From: a virus
Reading direction: 5' to 3' (one strand)
Length of the DNA: 64,000 bases
IMG/VR virus record: IMGVR_UViG_3300017731_002846
Span: 1-64,000 of that record
The notes below the pieces were generated by a model. It was not told the origin of the DNA, ran no database searches, and saw nothing but the letters and a program-made list of their open reading frames with translations. Of this stretch, positions 13,019 to 60,486 are shown one piece after another. The first letter of the stretch is position 1; each line of letters begins with the position of its first letter. The translations under genes were made by a program, and so were the position numbers.

Positions 13019-13047
13019 ACCCTAAACTGAACATTCAGATTTGTCAA
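13019..13047 (-). promoter_or_regulatory. sigma70-type early promoter
   Basis: TTGACA (13047-13042), 17-nt spacer, TAGGGT (13024-13019), 7 nt before ATG 13012 of the macro-domain gene, overlapping the end of the UvdE gene. Confidence 0.45.
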
Positions 13048-14041
13048 ATATATTTTTGAGCAACAATGCAATAGCTTTGTCTTTACCTTTCACTTCGCAT
13101 TCCCACTTTGCAGGTTTATCGGGTTCAATCGCAATATGTGGTGGAAAACTACCAAGAGCAAAATATTCTGCATGAGCGCGAGGCTTTTCGGGAGTACCTT
13201 CTGACCAATGAAAGACAGGAGCAATAAAATATCCTTCACTATCACCTTGAGCTATCCATGTGTGTGCACAACGTTCTGCTTGAAATCCAATACTGCGATC
13301 TTCTGATGGATTGCAAAAGTCATGTAGATTGTCATAACAAACAGGGATATTAACGCCATGCACCGCAAACAAATACTCGCTAAATTTAATACATTTATCT
13401 ACATTGAAGAAACCTTTGTCTTCGTTCTCGATAGTAAGACGATTGTAGACGCCACTATTGCACATGGAGAGGTTACGAAAGAATCTAGTAGCAACAATTT
13501 CTAAACTTTCATCCATCTTAGGGGTGTAATTAATATGGATGTTCATTGGAGCAGTATGATCTTGAGGCAACCCCATCTTATCAAGTACATAAGCTTGCAT
13601 ATTTAGTTCGCCAATAGTTCTACGAACCGCATCTTGATTCAAGGAAGCTAACACATTGAATTGATCGGGGTGAGAACCCATACTTATGTCGTTCTCCCTA
13701 GCAGTTTTACCTACTTGCTTTAATTCTTCTTTGATTTGCTCAATATCGGGCAACTCTTCAATATCAATACCCAAAGTTTCATCGGTAACGAGAGGAAAAA
13801 GAGCAGAGCTAACACGATAATGCCCGATATTTGACTTAGCACAATGACCGACAATAGATTCAGTAACAACAACATTATGCAAAATTCTATTAGACAACTC
13901 TTTAATTGCTTCATCTCTACCTTCTTTTACACATAGATCGTTAAACCTTTTACGTGTCATTGTGCGAAAGGAATATTCTTTCTTGTCTTTCTCTTTTAGT
14001 ATCTCGCTAATGCAAGTTAAGCCTAGTATTTGATCTGTCAT
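13022..14041 (-). CDS. uvsE: UV-damage endonuclease, UvdE/UvsE family
   Basis: 339 aa TIM-barrel endonuclease that nicks 5' of UV photoproducts and some other lesions. N-terminal LGLTCISEIL and GHYRVSSALFPLV are typical of the family. Likely metal ligands are all present: H124 (SHPDQF), H169 (NIHINY), E205 (TIENED), D237 and H240 (CYDNLHD), H278 (FHWSEG), H290 (PRAHAE) and E316 (CEVKGKD). So it should be active, unlike the paralogue at 46793-47917. Promoter at 14048-14076, predicted leaderless. Likely a repair enzyme for phage DNA in sunlit water. Confidence 0.92.
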   Translation of the reverse strand: MTDQILGLTCISEILKEKDKKEYSFRTMTRKRFNDLCVKEGRDEAIKELSNRILHNVVVTESIVGHCAKSNIGHYRVSSALFPLVTDETLGIDIEELPDIEQIKEELKQVGKTARENDISMGSHPDQFNVLASLNQDAVRRTIGELNMQAYVLDKMGLPQDHTAPMNIHINYTPKMDESLEIVATRFFRNLSMCNSGVYNRLTIENEDKGFFNVDKCIKFSEYLFAVHGVNIPVCYDNLHDFCNPSEDRSIGFQAERCAHTWIAQGDSEGYFIAPVFHWSEGTPEKPRAHAEYFALGSFPPHIAIEPDKPAKWECEVKGKDKAIALLLKNIFDKSECSV

Positions 14042-23918: not shown

Positions 23919-26879
23919 CTAGCATGCCGCCCCCCAATTTGGCAACTCGCTTGACGAAATATTGACGGCATTTGTTGCAAAACCATTTGGTGCAGAAGTA
24001 ACCCCGCTTACACACCATTGACTTAAATCTCCAGGTGAGGCCCCCTCGTAGTTTTGGAACATATTTGCAAAAGCCCAGCCCTCTTGGTGAGCGCCTGAAA
24101 GATCCCAATTGGATATGTCTCCAATAGTCGAAAAGTCGGAAGATTGAAACACTTCTACGAAAGCCTCCGTATCAGATGTGTCCCAATTGGTCAAATCTAT
24201 GCTAGGTAGAGATGAAGATTTTTGACCAACATAAGCAAACATCTTAGCAAAAGAAGAAATCGCACTTAAGTTAGTCCATCCACTACCACTAAGATCTAGG
24301 GTTTCTAAATTTTCTAACCCCCAAAACATATAACTCATATATTTAAGTGATGTAGAAAATGTCCAATCACTCAAATTAATAGATTTTAATGTTGCCTTCA
24401 TTGAATTCCTTCGAGCGGTGTTGGAGGAATTGTGACCAACGTCAAACATCCCCCCAAAACTACTGCAACTAGAAACATCCCAACCACTTAAATTGATAGA
24501 TGAAAACCATCTACAATTTTTAAACATGGAAGCCATGGTTGTAACATTGCTTACGTCCCAATTACTTAAATCAAGATCGATGGTATTGGCGGTTGATCTA
24601 CCATTAAATAACTCCGCCATATTAGTTATAGCACTTACGTTCCACGATCCGATTTCTCCATAAGTTTCATCTGCGGCAGTTTTGTTAGCTACCCATGCAT
24701 CAATCGCCGTAATTAGTTGACTTTTGGATGTAAAGGCATAACTGGATTCATTTGGAAGCTCCTCGGGAGCATCTTGTCCGTCCTCTGATACTAAGTTTTC
24801 TGACTCCCAAGTCGCACGATAACTTTCATAGACATCACTCTTAAGCTCATCCGGCATAGCGCTGTCATCCGTACAAAACATCAAAGGAAACCCTATGGCA
24901 TCTTTAACAGTATCTCCGTAAGTTGTTAATACATTTTTAATTGAGTCAGGGGTAGATACAGATTGAACTGCGGCAGATAGTGAGGTTGTACCGCAAAGAA
25001 AATTGGTGACATTTTCGCATTTCGCGCTTTGGATTATCGTGCCAGGAAACAACTCACTATTAAATTCAGTATTATCCTTAAACATGTTTTTTATAGATAT
25101 CGCATTGCTTACGTCCCAATCCTTAACTGATTGGTTGTATACAGATGACTCAAACATGCCAGTAAAATCTATATTCTTTTCACTTTGAGTGAGGCCTTTA
25201 CCGAAATTACCAGCCCATTTAGGTAATGGTTTGTTAAAAGCGGTGCTCTTTTTAAACATGTTTTTGAACGATTTTGCTTTGCGAATATTCCAGCTATTGC
25301 TAGATTTGCTAAGAGCGCTGCCCTCAAACATGCTTTCGAAACTTTCTACATTAGAAGTGTTCCATCTTTGAGTTCCTGGCTTAGCCCAAACAGCTTGATC
25401 AAATAAAGAAGCATTACAAAACATTCCTTTCATGGTTGTTGCAGAGCTAGTGCTCCATTTACTAACTGATTTATTGAAAGAGCTCGCACCGCGAAACATA
25501 TTCTTAAATGAAACAACATTAGAAACGTTCCAGCCATTAACCCCGCTATTGAGTTTTTTTGCATTATGGAACATTCCCTCCATGTTTTGTGCGCTAGATA
25601 CATCAATTCCACCAAGGAATTGTTCGTAATCCGCATTGTTTTTAAACATGTTCTTGAAATTAGTAACACTAGAAGTGTCCCATTTTTCGGTTATGCCGGG
25701 TTTATTGAAAACAGTACCCTCTAGAAAGCTTTCGAGACTAGTAACTTGACTGACATCCCAATGCTTGAGCTTGCCCGGCTTGTAGGAAGAGTATTCAAGA
25801 CATCCAGTTAAGTCAGTTAAAGTCCCCCCAGTGGCTGCATTTAGCTTAAAAAAATGAACATAAGAAGAACAGCCAGACATAAAGCCAAGCATGTTTGTGA
25901 TTCCATTCAAGTCCATATTTGAAATAACACTACTAAACTTAAGCCTAGTGCATCCTGCAAACATATGGTCAATTGCACCAGAAAAAGACTGAGTGTGGCC
26001 AGTCATATTTTCGATTCGCCGCACACTATAATTTGCAAAATCTCCAACCCCATGAAATCCAAAATCATCGCCCAAATTGATCCTAAATGCTTTACGTTTA
26101 TTCATTGGATTGATACTATCTCCATTAAAGGTGAAAATATCATACGCAGATTCATCGACACTATAACGTTGGGTTAACATGCCGTCCCATTCATTTAGGG
26201 TAGGTGCAATGCTTGTGTCAACAGAATCGACAATTTCAAACTCAGAACTATGCGTAACCCCATCGATGTCATAAAAATATTGCAAAAACCCTGTTTGCGT
26301 CTTTGTGTCTAGCTCTCCGTCAGAGTAAACTGCATCTAAATGAGAATTAGATTCCAGCCGAAAATTAAAATCGTTAGATGAGATGCTGTATTTCTCACCT
26401 TTAACAAGTTTAATTCCATCAGAGCTGCGAAGCCCAATATAATCTCCGTTAAATTTAAATACTAAGTCAGTTTGATCCGTTGACATGCTCAGATCGCCTT
26501 TTTGATTATTCAAGAATACATTCGAGCCGTATCGAGAAACACTTTGCTTCGGTAACGCTAAATACGAATCATTATCATTCAATTCATTTTTCCATCCACC
26601 TGTTATTGAAACTGTTTTATTCCCTGTGGAGCTGTAATACTGAATTGTTTGTGAAGCATTATCTGTGTGGATGAGATTTACTTTTTTGTCCGAAATAACA
26701 ATGCCGTTATTGCTGTTGCTTGAATATGTAATGTTCTGTTGTCCGCCATCGCCCCAATTCACGGTCGCACTAAATACAGGATTACTATTAGTAATCCCAG
26801 GAGTGTCTGCTGCGCCAGCAACTACGAATGATACAATATCTTGTGGTGTGTAATAACCTTTGAATTCTAATTTAGCCAT
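23919..26879 (-). CDS. DUF285/BspA-repeat protein, probable fibre or adhesin
   Basis: 986 aa, no signal peptide. The N-terminal about 270 residues are beta-rich (MAKLEFKGYYTPQDIVSFVV..., a PKD-like VNWGDGG). From about residue 290 to the end there are some 20 repeats of the DUF285 type: W-D-V/T-S-x-V-T/S-x-M/F-x-x-M-F-x-x-x-x-x-F-N. They form extended solenoids in bacterial surface adhesins such as BspA. Here, with a GTGTA element upstream and a terminator downstream, it is a monocistronic virion-type gene, most simply a receptor-binding fibre. Not membrane-bound by sequence. Confidence 0.8.
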   Translation of the reverse strand: MAKLEFKGYYTPQDIVSFVVAGAADTPGITNSNPVFSATVNWGDGGQQNITYSSNSNNGIVISDKKVNLIHTDNASQTIQYYSSTGNKTVSITGGWKNELNDNDSYLALPKQSVSRYGSNVFLNNQKGDLSMSTDQTDLVFKFNGDYIGLRSSDGIKLVKGEKYSISSNDFNFRLESNSHLDAVYSDGELDTKTQTGFLQYFYDIDGVTHSSEFEIVDSVDTSIAPTLNEWDGMLTQRYSVDESAYDIFTFNGDSINPMNKRKAFRINLGDDFGFHGVGDFANYSVRRIENMTGHTQSFSGAIDHMFAGCTRLKFSSVISNMDLNGITNMLGFMSGCSSYVHFFKLNAATGGTLTDLTGCLEYSSYKPGKLKHWDVSQVTSLESFLEGTVFNKPGITEKWDTSSVTNFKNMFKNNADYEQFLGGIDVSSAQNMEGMFHNAKKLNSGVNGWNVSNVVSFKNMFRGASSFNKSVSKWSTSSATTMKGMFCNASLFDQAVWAKPGTQRWNTSNVESFESMFEGSALSKSSNSWNIRKAKSFKNMFKKSTAFNKPLPKWAGNFGKGLTQSEKNIDFTGMFESSVYNQSVKDWDVSNAISIKNMFKDNTEFNSELFPGTIIQSAKCENVTNFLCGTTSLSAAVQSVSTPDSIKNVLTTYGDTVKDAIGFPLMFCTDDSAMPDELKSDVYESYRATWESENLVSEDGQDAPEELPNESSYAFTSKSQLITAIDAWVANKTAADETYGEIGSWNVSAITNMAELFNGRSTANTIDLDLSNWDVSNVTTMASMFKNCRWFSSINLSGWDVSSCSSFGGMFDVGHNSSNTARRNSMKATLKSINLSDWTFSTSLKYMSYMFWGLENLETLDLSGSGWTNLSAISSFAKMFAYVGQKSSSLPSIDLTNWDTSDTEAFVEVFQSSDFSTIGDISNWDLSGAHQEGWAFANMFQNYEGASPGDLSQWCVSGVTSAPNGFATNAVNISSSELPNWGAAC

Positions 26880-46392: not shown

Positions 46393-46756
46393 TGGTGGAC
46401 GTGGCGGTAGTCGAAACCGCGTCTTTAAATCTTCAAGAAATATACATCTACAAGTTTAGTTTATTTTTTTTATAGTTATGATATAAACATCTAACTACTC
46501 GTTTCAGTTATTTACAGTTTGTGGAACAAGTAAACTTTTTCTGTTTTGCAGATACATAACCCCGCAATCTCAATATCTGCGTCAAGAGTTACGAGGTAGC
46601 GGATACTAGGCCGCTAAAGCAAGCTCTTCGCTTTTAGGCGAGTAAGCTTTGATACGTGACTTATTGCCATGTAAACTTTTGTGCCTTTTTAAGGAGCCAG
46701 ACACACTCCTACTTGCAGTATACCAATTCAATTTAAATCAAATCCAGTACACGCCC
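46393..46756 (-). ncRNA. ssrA: transfer-messenger RNA
   Basis: 364 nt. The 5' end GGGCGTG pairs with CACGTCC near the 3' end, which finishes CCA. The T-arm is GCGGT-TTCGACT-ACCGC (about 46402-46418). Pseudoknot 1 is seen upstream of the tag: AGGAG pairs with CTCCT, and TGTG in the loop pairs with CACA. The resume codon GGC (46668-46666) lies 11 nt after PK1. The reading frame runs 20 codons to TAG (46608-46606) and ends ...SEELALAA. The RNA would rescue stalled ribosomes and tag peptides for ClpP-type proteases. The 3' CCA is encoded. A GTGTA element lies upstream. Confidence 0.9.
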
Positions 46757-46773
46757 ATAAAATATTAAAGAAC

Positions 46774-46792: not shown

Positions 46793-47917
46793 CTATTGCC
46801 CCTTAGTAATTTCTTGTTCGCCATCTTGGCTCACAATACTTGTTTGAGATCTAGCGGCTTCATATAATGCATTATAGTTTTTTGTAACCTTCTTGTATCT
46901 CCCGCGAGTGATTTCACGAAGAGATTCTTCAGTGATCCTACTAGGGCCTTCATCCTCAAACAACTTAAGTATTGCAAGATCTTTAAGAGTTACATCAACT
47001 TCCCATTTAATTTGATACCCAAAATCAGGAATAGCCTGAGAGAGTTCGGGGGCAAATGCCCTTGGCTGATCTGCACTTTTAGACTCTGTCCAAGTAAATA
47101 CAGGTACAACCCCATGCCAAGTTTCATGAAAAGCTCCAATATTAATTTTTTGCTCGACTATAGAGCCGTCAATCTTAGATGGATTGAGAGCATCAAATAA
47201 ATTATTATAAGCCAATGGAAAACCAAAGTCATGTTCTTCGTAACAATAAATATGCAAGTATTTAAACAAATTAAATGCTGACCAAGAACCATGATCTGCA
47301 TTTTTTAATACAAGCCTCCTTTGAGCCGAAGGGTCAAGCTCTTTAAAGTTACCATAAAAACGATCAGTAAAATCGCAATAAGCATCGTGATCCTCTTTGC
47401 TAGGTTGGGAATTTAAATGCAAAGATATTGGCGCGGAAATATTTTCTTGAGCGCCTATTTCATCAAGGAACCAGGAATAAAAATTAATCTCTTTGATCGA
47501 TTTTTCAACCACCGAGTCGTCGTCGTCAATTAATTTACAGAATTTATCAGGCTGAATAGACAAAGAAACCCCTTTGGTTACAGCCGTCCTGCCGATCTCT
47601 TTAATTGCATTTAAAAGTTCACCATGTTCTGGCAAATCTGTGATAGATAAATCAGATGAAGGATCAGAAAGAATACCAAATACGGATGTATTTAATCGAT
47701 AATGATCGATTCCACTATCTCGGCAGAAATCAATAATCTTAACAGTAAGATTTAAATTACTTAAAATCTCGTCTTTTAATTTCTTGAGGGCAGCTTGATC
47801 ACCCTGCTGCGAAGACAGCTCGGTGTAAGCTTTGCGGGTCATGCCCACAAAAGTGTTTGCCGGATCCTCTTGCTCGAGGATTTTTGAAGTGCAGACTAGT
47901 CCGTATTTGGTATTCAT
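46793..47917 (-). CDS. UvdE-family protein with lost metal ligands
   Basis: 374 aa. Clear homologue of the 13022-14041 UvdE: MTRKAYTELSSQQGDQAALK, HYRLNTSVFGIL, PISLHLNSQ, and NNLFDAL..., PVFTWTES align. Of the putative metal ligands of the active copy, H124 is Q122, E205 is K205, D237 is N238, H240 is F241, H278 is T275, H290 is F288 and E316 is D308; only H169 is kept as H167. Probably cannot bind the metal cluster. It may bind DNA or damage without cutting, or have another function. It has about 60 extra C-terminal residues. Confidence 0.8.
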   Translation of the reverse strand: MNTKYGLVCTSKILEQEDPANTFVGMTRKAYTELSSQQGDQAALKKLKDEILSNLNLTVKIIDFCRDSGIDHYRLNTSVFGILSDPSSDLSITDLPEHGELLNAIKEIGRTAVTKGVSLSIQPDKFCKLIDDDDSVVEKSIKEINFYSWFLDEIGAQENISAPISLHLNSQPSKEDHDAYCDFTDRFYGNFKELDPSAQRRLVLKNADHGSWSAFNLFKYLHIYCYEEHDFGFPLAYNNLFDALNPSKIDGSIVEQKINIGAFHETWHGVVPVFTWTESKSADQPRAFAPELSQAIPDFGYQIKWEVDVTLKDLAILKLFEDEGPSRITEESLREITRGRYKKVTKNYNALYEAARSQTSIVSQDGEQEITKGQ

Positions 47918-58077: not shown

Positions 58078-60486
58078 TTATTCTAATAATTCGAACTCTA
58101 TATCACCTTTTAATACATAGAAATTAAAATTTAACCCTTTTTGAATCTCTGCATTAAAATAATGATCAACTATTACATCTTCAATATACTGCTTAATTAA
58201 TCTTTTTAGGGGCCTCGCTCCCATTTTTTGCTCTGCAGCTAGACCACATACATGTTTAACTACATCTTGGGAGTAATTAATTTTAATCTTTTTCTTGCGG
58301 AGTTTCTTTTGCATGGATTGCAGCTCTTTTTTGAATATTTTATGAAGATCCTTATCTTTCAGGTGGCTAAAGACAACTATGTCGTCCAGCCTATTAATTA
58401 ATTCAGGACTAAGAACTTTCTTGGCAGAAGATATAATCTTTGGGCCATTATCTACGGGCTCAGGAGAAAAACCAAGAGTACTTTTCGTGGTAAGGTCGGC
58501 TCCGATATTGCTGGTCAAGATAATAATTGCGTCACTAAAATAAGACATTACCCCATTATTGTCCTTTAGCGACCCCTCATCCATTACTTGCAGTAATATT
58601 TGCTGAACAGATGGGTCAGCTTTTTCAATTTCATCAAAAAGCACAACAGAGTGAGGGTCTCGCTTTATCTTTTCGGTCAAAAGCCCTCCTTCTTCATAAC
58701 CCACATACCCTGGAGATGAGCCAATTAATTTATTCGCAGAAATCTTATCAGAGTATTCAGACATGTCAAACCTGATAATCTTCTTTTCGGAACCAAAATA
58801 ATGTTTGGCAAGCATTTTAGCCGTCCATGTCTTTCCGACGCCAGAAGCTCCCAGAAATAGAAATGAACCAATAGGCTTGTCAGCATCTTTAAGACCTATT
58901 TGCGACCTTAATATTGATTTACTGATAGCAGATGTAGCATCCGTTTGATTAACGACGTCTCGAGTTAAAAGTTTTAAAAGGCGGGATGCCCTGTCGCTCT
59001 CTTCATCAATTAAGTTATCAATAGGAATCTTAGATTTTCGAGAAATAATAGTCAATATATCATCTTTAGAAACATTCCTAATAGGAGCCTTTTTCCAATC
59101 ATTAGATAATTTTTCGTAACGTTTTAAAAGCATTTCCTCTTCGTTGGCAGAGCAAGTATTTAAACTAAAACAATCATACAGCTTATTCTCCAGATCTTTT
59201 ATCTCATCAGGAGCAGTAGAGTTTGCAATCTTAACCATCGCGCCGCATTCGTCAAGGACATCTATAGCTTTATCCGGAAACTTTTGAGCTGGCAAGTACA
59301 GGTCGCAAAGATTAACGATGTTTTTTAAGATTTTTTGATTGTATTTTGTTCCATGAAAATCCTCATAGTGACCTTTTATACCTTTCAGTATATCAAAACA
59401 TTCCAATGGTGTCGGCTCGCTAACAGCTATAGACTCAAACCTACGAACCAAGGCCGAATCTTTTTCAAAATTTTTCTTATACTCAGAAAAGGTAGTGGCT
59501 GCGATTAATTTAATTTTACCACGAGCCAATGCTGGCTTTAAGATGTTAGCAGCATCCATAGCTCCTTCAGCACTGCCAGCTCCAACCAAGGTGTGAGCTT
59601 CGTCTATAAATAAAATAACATTAGGCTTTTCTTTACACTCCTTTATTAAGGATTTAACTCTTTGCTCAAACTGACCACGGTATTTAGTTCCAGCTATCAT
59701 TGATGCTAAATCAATGGAATAAATTTCCTTATTAATTAAAAAATCAGGAACATCAGCTTTTGTTATTTTATAAGCAAGCCCTTCAACGATGGCAGTCTTA
59801 CCAACACCAGGATCTCCTAGTAATATAGGGTTGTTTTTATTTTTTCTGGCTAAAACCTCACAAATTCTTGAAATTTCAAAATGTTTACCAATGATCGGGT
59901 TGATTTTTTTATCACGACATTCAGTATTTAAATTAGTAGCAAATGAATCCAGGATACTTTCAGTAGTTTTGGTGGACGCAGGGCCTTGGGATTTAGAACC
60001 AAAAGGAAAGTCTGGGGACTCATTTTTATCATAAAGGTCGCCAGACTTCATCCTAACCAAGTATTCTTCAGCAGCTTTACGGGCATCTACCCCTTCGGAA
60101 GTAAAGAAATGATATATAGGGCCATTTTTAGAATTTAGAAAACAAAAGAATATGTGATCGATACTAACATAATCGTTACCTATTTGGGATGCTAATTGAT
60201 GCACCGCAGCAAGGAACTGTACGAGATCATCAGAATAAGAGCAATCCTCAAACTCATCAGGGTCCTGTTTTTCGAGAGAGAAAAAAGAATTAATAAACAA
60301 AACTAACGAATCAAGATCGATACCTAAGTCGGCCAAGAAATTATCTATATTAAAATCATTAGACTTTAACAAAATAAGTAAAACATGGCAAGGCTCTACC
60401 TCCTGATAGTTTAGCGCTTTAGCTAAAGTTTTAGCCTGTCGGATTATTTTTTGAGCTTGAGGTGTGAAATTAGGAGAGATTTCCAT
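58078..60486 (-). CDS. ClpC/ClpA-like AAA+ unfoldase
   Basis: 802 aa. N-terminal Clp-N repeats (1-145), then D1 with Walker A GDPGVGKTA (224-232), IDEAHTLVGAG Walker B, and D2 with GASGVGKTWTA and VVLFDEIEKADP. Near residue 660 a NIGADLTTKSTLGFSPEP loop holds an L-G-F, the ClpP-docking tripeptide type. The middle domain (KLSNDWKKAP...) is short as in ClpA/ClpC, not ClpB. A phage-encoded substrate selector for the host ClpP is the likely role; it may also serve the tmRNA tag. No ClpP in the window. Confidence 0.88.
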   Translation of the reverse strand: MEISPNFTPQAQKIIRQAKTLAKALNYQEVEPCHVLLILLKSNDFNIDNFLADLGIDLDSLVLFINSFFSLEKQDPDEFEDCSYSDDLVQFLAAVHQLASQIGNDYVSIDHIFFCFLNSKNGPIYHFFTSEGVDARKAAEEYLVRMKSGDLYDKNESPDFPFGSKSQGPASTKTTESILDSFATNLNTECRDKKINPIIGKHFEISRICEVLARKNKNNPILLGDPGVGKTAIVEGLAYKITKADVPDFLINKEIYSIDLASMIAGTKYRGQFEQRVKSLIKECKEKPNVILFIDEAHTLVGAGSAEGAMDAANILKPALARGKIKLIAATTFSEYKKNFEKDSALVRRFESIAVSEPTPLECFDILKGIKGHYEDFHGTKYNQKILKNIVNLCDLYLPAQKFPDKAIDVLDECGAMVKIANSTAPDEIKDLENKLYDCFSLNTCSANEEEMLLKRYEKLSNDWKKAPIRNVSKDDILTIISRKSKIPIDNLIDEESDRASRLLKLLTRDVVNQTDATSAISKSILRSQIGLKDADKPIGSFLFLGASGVGKTWTAKMLAKHYFGSEKKIIRFDMSEYSDKISANKLIGSSPGYVGYEEGGLLTEKIKRDPHSVVLFDEIEKADPSVQQILLQVMDEGSLKDNNGVMSYFSDAIIILTSNIGADLTTKSTLGFSPEPVDNGPKIISSAKKVLSPELINRLDDIVVFSHLKDKDLHKIFKKELQSMQKKLRKKKIKINYSQDVVKHVCGLAAEQKMGARPLKRLIKQYIEDVIVDHYFNAEIQKGLNFNFYVLKGDIEFELLE

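What the first reader, a model, noticed from the sequence alone, without database searches (positions are those of the whole stretch)
46393..46756. Phage-encoded tmRNA with an unusually long 20-codon tag
Acceptor stem GGGCGTG/CACGTCC, encoded CCA, TTCGACT T-loop, an evident pseudoknot 1 and an ORF from GGC ending ELALAA-TAG. Resume-codon placement 11 nt after PK1 matches E. coli geometry. A tag of 20 residues (starting GNKSRIKAYS) is about twice the usual length. Phage tmRNAs are known but uncommon. With the ClpC-like unfoldase in the same genome, the phage may run its own tag-and-unfold route into host ClpP.
Basis: partly seen in the sequence, partly recalled or inferred. Interest (0 to 1): 0.75.

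Follow-up and report, generated by a model that had tools for sequence, protein, structure and literature searches.

The report
Phage ribosome-rescue RNA, extra-long tag
A large environmental phage carries a complete ribosome-rescue RNA (tmRNA) of its own, and it belongs to a widespread, largely unannotated phage family in which the peptide stuck onto stalled proteins is always two to four times longer than the roughly 10-residue bacterial norm.

Summary
Window 46393-46756, minus strand, is a full-length one-piece tmRNA: Rfam RF00023, 114.9 bits, model 1-374, E 3.6e-44. ARAGORN misses it. The tag GNKSRIKAYSPKSEELALAA (20 codons, TAG stop) is real. Its resume codon lies four nucleotides after the invariant A that sets the frame in E. 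coli, and the frame is under purifying selection. It is not a one-off: I found 80 further IMG/VR contigs plus one MAG contig with the same family. These 82 copies hold 50 different tags, all 20-41 residues: basic GNK/GKN (20-21), extended basic (31-33), acidic GEGY...EELEMVA (34-41), and AK...LLDRFNPAKK (38). The longest exceed the quoted 8-35 range. A 27-sequence alignment shows strong covariation in the tRNA-like domain and four pseudoknots. No SmpB and no above-cut-off ClpP was found in 31 family records, so the RNA must borrow the host's. The ClpC-like unfoldase is genuine ([LIV]GF loop). It co-occurs with the tmRNA in 30 of 32 non-GKN contigs of at least 45 kb, and in four contigs lies 67-210 nt upstream of it. 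GKN-tag phages mostly lack it, so the tag-to-ClpC route is plausible but unproven. Host unassigned. Verdict: a real, new variant of a known kind.

The parts
46393..46756 (-). complete one-piece tmRNA (ssrA) gene, 364 nt, ACCA encoded
   Evidence: Rfam RF00023, 114.9 bits, model 1-374; covariation in 27 relatives
46750..46756 (-). 5' half of acceptor stem GGGCGTG; G3 pairs with U (alanine identity)
   Evidence: G3-U in 27 of 27 relatives
46393..46403 (-). 3' half of acceptor stem CACGTCC plus ACCA
46404..46420 (-). T-arm GCGGT-TTCGACT-ACCGC
   Evidence: five pairs, all with two-sided changes and 100% paired in relatives
46680..46710 (-). pseudoknot 1
   Evidence: AGGAG/CTCCT and TGTGTC/GGCACA; two-sided changes in 6 of 11 pairs
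46669..46673 (-). TACAT just upstream of the resume codon; A at -4 is the equivalent of E. coli A86
   Evidence: TA at -5/-4 in 80 of 80 family copies checked; A86-to-resume distance of 4 from PMC2481249
46606..46668 (-). tag reading frame: GGC resume codon, GNKSRIKAYSPKSEELALAA, TAG stop at 46606-46608
   Evidence: frame-specific purifying selection in relatives
46548..46596 (-). pseudoknot 2
   Evidence: CCTCG/CGGGG, CTC/GAG and GCAGATA/TATCTGC
46498..46543 (-). pseudoknot 3
   Evidence: CAG/CTG and CTTGT/ACGAG, the latter strongly covarying
46459..46497 (-). pseudoknot 4
   Evidence: TAGTT/AACTA and GTTTAT/ATAAAC, four two-sided pairs in the second stem
46757..46773 (-). leader GTTCTTTAATATTTTAT directly upstream of the mature 5' end, recurring in most relatives; role unknown
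   Evidence: upstream columns printed
46793..47917 (-). UvdE-like UV endonuclease, 36 nt upstream of the tmRNA
   Evidence: Pfam PF03851, 75.7 bits
58078..60486 (-). ClpC-like double-AAA unfoldase, 802 aa, LGF loop
   Evidence: Pfam Clp_N, AAA, AAA_lid_9, AAA_2, ClpB_D2-small; best PDB match B. subtilis ClpC, 552 bits

Best explanation
This is a phage-borne, functional one-piece tmRNA. Shown by sequence: it folds as a canonical tmRNA, keeps the alanine identity pair, CCA, the resume-frame determinant and a selected tag frame, and belongs to a phage-specific family with long tags. Inferred: during infection it is charged by host alanyl-tRNA synthetase, loaded with host SmpB onto ribosomes stalled on broken mRNAs, releases them, and appends Ala + GNKSRIKAYSPKSEELALAA. 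The LALAA end marks the product for Clp-type proteolysis by host ClpXP, and plausibly also by the phage's own ClpC-like unfoldase working with host ClpP, since the phage records show neither SmpB nor ClpP. The added tag residues probably serve as an extended handle that keeps recognition independent of host adaptors; this last step is the weakest and is not covered by the confidence given here, which is for a functional tmRNA that adds this tag.
For: Rfam hit at full model length. Covariation in acceptor, T-arm, P2 and four pseudoknots over 27 relatives, 249 two-sided cells against 84 shuffled. pN/pS in the tag frame is 0.28, 0.20, 0.15 and 0.46 in four tag groups; pS does not exceed pN appreciably in either other frame, with a weak excess in frame +1 of the most diverged group only. 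A at -4 in 80 of 80 copies, matching the E. coli A86 ruler. 82 copies, 50 different tags, all 20-41 aa. No SmpB in 31 records and no above-cut-off ClpP. ClpC-like gene in 19 of 31 and 20 of 38 records, 30 of 32 among non-GKN contigs of at least 45 kb, and 67-210 nt upstream of the tmRNA in L018, L026, L029 and L125.
Against: No expression, charging or tagging data. SmpB and ClpP may sit in missing parts of incomplete contigs. GKN-tag phages mostly lack the unfoldase (12 of 13 contigs of at least 45 kb), so ClpC is not a necessary partner. Most genes in these contigs seem to run in one direction, so same-strand placement (34 of 36) says little. Related contigs are not independent observations, and the family was collected by sequence patterns, so shared length may partly be shared descent.
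Confidence: 0.85

Rival explanations
1. The long tag is passive: an ancestral length difference in an ordinary rescue RNA, with only the last residues (LALAA) doing any work. (This competes with the extended-handle part of the best explanation, not with the tmRNA itself.)
For: The LALAA-type end is kept in most classes while the middle varies widely in sequence, length and charge. Tag classes cluster by clade on the backbone tree. Bacterial tags up to about 35 residues are on record.
Against: The N-terminal half is itself conserved (G-N-K-x-R-[VI]-K in the basic classes; EELLEAAREEY in the acidic class) and the tag frame as a whole is under purifying selection. No copy in the family has fallen below 20 residues. 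An acidic tag sits on a backbone of the other clade (L026, starred branch), suggesting exchange of whole tags.
Confidence: 0.4
2. It is a decoy that titrates SmpB or blocks host trans-translation, as suggested for the tRNA-like-only tmRNA of mycobacteriophage DS6A.
For: Phage tmRNAs reduced to the tRNA-like domain exist, and a similar molecule strongly inhibits tmRNA (PMC4131195). The phage records show no SmpB of their own.
Against: The whole mRNA-like domain, the frame-setting A and the tag frame are conserved and selected, which a decoy does not need.
Confidence: 0.08
3. It is a host tmRNA gene picked up at an integration site or by misassembly.
For: tmRNA genes are known phage integration sites (PMC3029335). 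The closest bacterial 5' ends and resume regions are from Opitutaceae.
Against: The gene recurs in 80 further viral contigs, and close to the same UvdE gene in the near relatives. Its tag (20-41 aa) differs from the Opitutaceae tag G[TN]YE[EA]MPLAA (10 aa) and from the 9-16 aa tags of other Verrucomicrobiota. It is a complete gene, not a 3' fragment.
Confidence: 0.03

Closest known systems
Bacterial one-piece tmRNA (SsrA), Rfam RF00023
   Same: Full model match, tRNA-like domain with G3-U70, PK1 to PK4, A at -4, tag ending in hydrophobic residues (LALAA)
   Different: Tag 20 residues here and up to 41 in relatives, against 9-16 in the Verrucomicrobiota sample; carried by phages in whose records no SmpB was found
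tmRNAs of cultured phages (Bacillus phage G, Xanthomonas phage XacN1, mycobacteriophage Bxz1 and relatives)
   Same: Phage-encoded tmRNA, large genomes
   Different: Phage G and XacN1 tags measure 13 and 12 residues by ARAGORN. No nucleotide relative of this family in 50,697 phage records beyond a 31-nt 3' end. I could not retrieve the Bxz1 record, so its tag was not measured
tmRNA of OM43 methylophage Melnitz (PMC9004378)
   Same: Environmental phage with its own tmRNA; the authors also propose tagging of host proteins
   Different: Melnitz has a two-piece permuted tmRNA with a glutamine riboswitch; this one is one-piece
Opitutaceae tmRNA (L041-L044, L046, L047)
   Same: Same 5' end GTGTTCTGGATTCGA and TTGGATT (some family members), and a similar TAAATGGC resume region
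   Different: Tag G[TN]YE[EA]MPLAA of 10 residues; the rest of the mRNA-like domain differs

Membership tests
tmRNA (RF00023) | covariance-model score above the gathering threshold over the full model | tested here: met
   114.9 bits against 47, positions 1-374
tmRNA (RF00023) | alanine tRNA-like domain: 7-bp acceptor with G3-U70, T-arm, CCA end | tested here: met
   G-U in 27 of 27
tmRNA (RF00023) | pseudoknots 1-4 | tested here: met
   The count of structure pairs helices 5-13
tmRNA (RF00023) | resume codon 4 nt after the conserved A, followed by a stop-terminated tag frame with a hydrophobic end | tested here: met
   ruler
tmRNA (RF00023) | alanylation, SmpB binding and ribosome rescue | not testable with these tools
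   needs biochemistry
SsrA tags as catalogued (8-35 residues) | tag length within the quoted range | tested here: met
   Window 20 residues; relatives L103 (40), L025 (41) and L127/L133/L143 (38) are outside
ClpC unfoldase | Clp_N domain, two AAA modules, D2-small domain, no long ClpB coiled coil | tested here: met
   one continuous alignment to B. subtilis ClpC, residues 6-792; ClpB aligns only in two pieces
ClpC unfoldase | [LIV]GF ClpP-docking loop | tested here: met
   LGF in the window protein, aligned to ClpC VGF; [LIV]GF in 8 of 9 family proteins looked at, absent in L133
ClpC unfoldase | recognises this tag and delivers it to ClpP | not testable with these tools
   needs a degradation assay

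The most novel reading that the evidence does not exclude
These phages run a private tag-and-destroy line: a tmRNA whose extended, class-specific tag is the cognate degron of the phage's own ClpC-type unfoldase, so that stalled products are routed to host ClpP without host adaptors. Different phages have exchanged whole tag modules (basic against acidic) to change the recognition.
Probability: 0.25. Interest if true: 0.8.

Novelty: new variant of a known kind. Interest (0 to 1): 0.58.

Why it matters
Phage tmRNAs are usually treated as spare copies of a host part. Here is a large phage family in which the tag is two to four times the usual length, is under selection as a reading frame, comes in at least four classes, and in most classes travels with a ClpC-type unfoldase. 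That makes the question of what phages want from trans-translation testable with a two-gene reconstitution. It also shows a blind spot: ARAGORN missed 13 of 36 copies tried and gave another tag for 11 more, so ARAGORN-based censuses of phage tmRNA are likely undercounts.

Tried and rejected
ARAGORN as sole test: finds nothing here. Other reading frames of the tag (AISHVSKLTRLKAKSLL*): rejected by the A-to-resume distance and by frame-specific selection. Recoded stop codons: TAG ends 7 of 88 ORFs of 150 aa or more, so the standard code fits and the tag ends at TAG. Similarity of the 31-residue basic tag to a protein of known structure: none. Host assignment: the only MAG contig with the family sits in a Halobacteriovorax bin, whose 1.4-Mb contig carries a different tmRNA (tag ANNDFAPAMAA), so binning error is likely. 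The phage DUF1501 protein reaches 50% identity in a few Verrucomicrobiota genomes, but I had no control phylum, so it does not name a host. A full-length covariance model of this family exceeds the 400-column limit and was not built. Bxz1 and Wildcat records were not in the collection. No structure prediction was run, since it would not test tag recognition.

Full report
Check of the observation. cmscan places one tmRNA in the 64-kb window at 46756-46393 on the minus strand, complete and far above threshold. ARAGORN finds none, also when given the 364-nt gene alone with default settings. The record is a 105,904-base viral contig with a tail sheath match, tail fibre matches, a clamp loader, a DnaE-type polymerase, a DnaB-type helicase and a primase-like protein, so the carrier is a tailed phage.

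Is the frame right? The resume codon GGC follows TACAT. In E. coli A86 acts as a ruler that sets the resume codon four nucleotides downstream (PMC2481249). In 80 of 80 family copies checked an A lies exactly four nucleotides before the proposed codon. Within four groups of equal-length tags, synonymous change exceeds non-synonymous change clearly only in this frame: pN/pS 0.28, 0.20, 0.15 and 0.46. In the most diverged group (the window's own) the +1 frame shows a slight excess of pS as well (0.336 against 0.296).

A family. The UvdE gene directly upstream led to seven related IMG/VR contigs, all with a tmRNA close by. A 5'-end pattern gave 29 stretches and a PK4 pattern gave 81 stretches. After removing duplicates and unrelated matches there are 82 copies: the window, 80 further viral contigs and one MAG contig. 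They encode 50 different tags of 20 to 41 residues (lengths 20:21, 21:40, 31:7, 32:1, 33:1, 34:7, 38:3, 40:1, 41:1). For comparison, 28 readable Verrucomicrobiota tmRNAs have tags of 9-16 residues, Opitutaceae 10, phage G 13 and XacN1 12. Reviews quote 8-35 residues. So the window's 20 is long but not record-breaking; the 38-41 residue relatives are beyond the quoted range.

Structure. On 27 aligned members, 77 pairs in 14 helices are 95.4% paired. 42 pairs have two-sided changes (shuffled 23.6) and 249 cells are compensatory (shuffled 84; slid controls 19-34). Covariation is seen in the acceptor stem, P2, T-arm and pseudoknots; in PK3 it rests on the second stem only. The shuffles ignore relatedness, but the slid controls keep it.

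Tag evolution. A tree of the RNA without its tag groups the classes well, but needs 10 changes of class against a minimum of 5. The acidic tag appears on two backbones separated by a starred branch (L026 inside the GNK/GKN clade), which suggests that whole tags have been exchanged. This is a quick tree with single-method support, so I hold it loosely.

Partners. No SmpB at E <= 1 in 31 family records. No ClpP above its cut-off; three sub-threshold partial matches in other records (10-15 bits) were not pursued. The window does carry a ClpC-like unfoldase at 58078-60486, best matched by B. subtilis ClpC with its VGF loop aligned to LGF. Homologues occur in 19 of 31 and 20 of 38 records. In contigs of at least 45 kb the gene is found in 30 of 32 with GNK-like, extended or acidic tags, but in 1 of 13 with GKN tags (the window itself is not in that count). 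The tmRNA lies 67, 206, 210 and 169 nt downstream of it in L018, L026, L029 and L125, spanning three tag classes; in the window it is 11.3 kb downstream. Linkage is therefore suggestive, not obligatory.

Mechanism. The best reading is a working tmRNA that borrows host alanyl-tRNA synthetase, SmpB and ribosomes, releases stalled ribosomes during infection and tags the products. The -ALAA end fits ClpX/ClpA-type recognition (established for E. coli, PMC8012679). Whether the long N-terminal part is a handle for the phage unfoldase is the open and testable question.

Origin and host. An Opitutaceae-like source for the RNA is plausible; the host is not assigned.

Novelty. Phage tmRNAs are known (402 of 18,146 phage genomes in one ARAGORN survey, PMC9004378). 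I found no report of this family, of its long tags, or of the ClpC linkage in the papers searched, which is a limited library. I file it as a new variant of a known kind.

Noticed in passing
L002:2243-3550 (record 66243-67550); also L007:9550-10830: Phage-encoded DUF1501 protein (357 bits in the window's record); in L006-L008 a protein of this kind is encoded directly downstream of the tmRNA.
   Followed up: partly
window 13022-14041: A second UvdE-like endonuclease besides the one next to the tmRNA (46793-47917).
   Followed up: no
window 23919-26879: 986-aa protein with six DUF285 repeats (294 bits).
   Followed up: no
record 76-96 kb (L002/L003): Long same-strand run of about 20 ORFs whose starts look like glycosyltransferases, sulfotransferases and methyltransferases, seemingly a surface-sugar cluster; not searched against families.
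   Followed up: no
AP018399.1 37188-37293 and 355983-356088: Xanthomonas phage XacN1 carries two copies of an unannotated tmRNA-like gene, 318.8 kb apart; Rfam scores 33 bits, below threshold, while ARAGORN calls a permuted tmRNA with tag ANANTFDYALAA for the first.
   Followed up: partly
L121 record (G165), 3-53 kb: Viral contig with a different tmRNA with a very short tag (ADYAIAA by ARAGORN) and many weak tRNA-like hits, probably a dense tRNA array.
   Followed up: no
G008 (Halobacteriovorax MAG) contigs C14, C24, C25: Three different full-length tmRNAs in one MAG; at least C24 looks like a phage contig, so the bin is probably mixed.
   Followed up: partly
window 46757-46773: 17-nt leader GTTCTTTAATATTTTAT directly before the mature 5' end recurs in most family members; too close for an ordinary promoter, role unknown.
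   Followed up: partly
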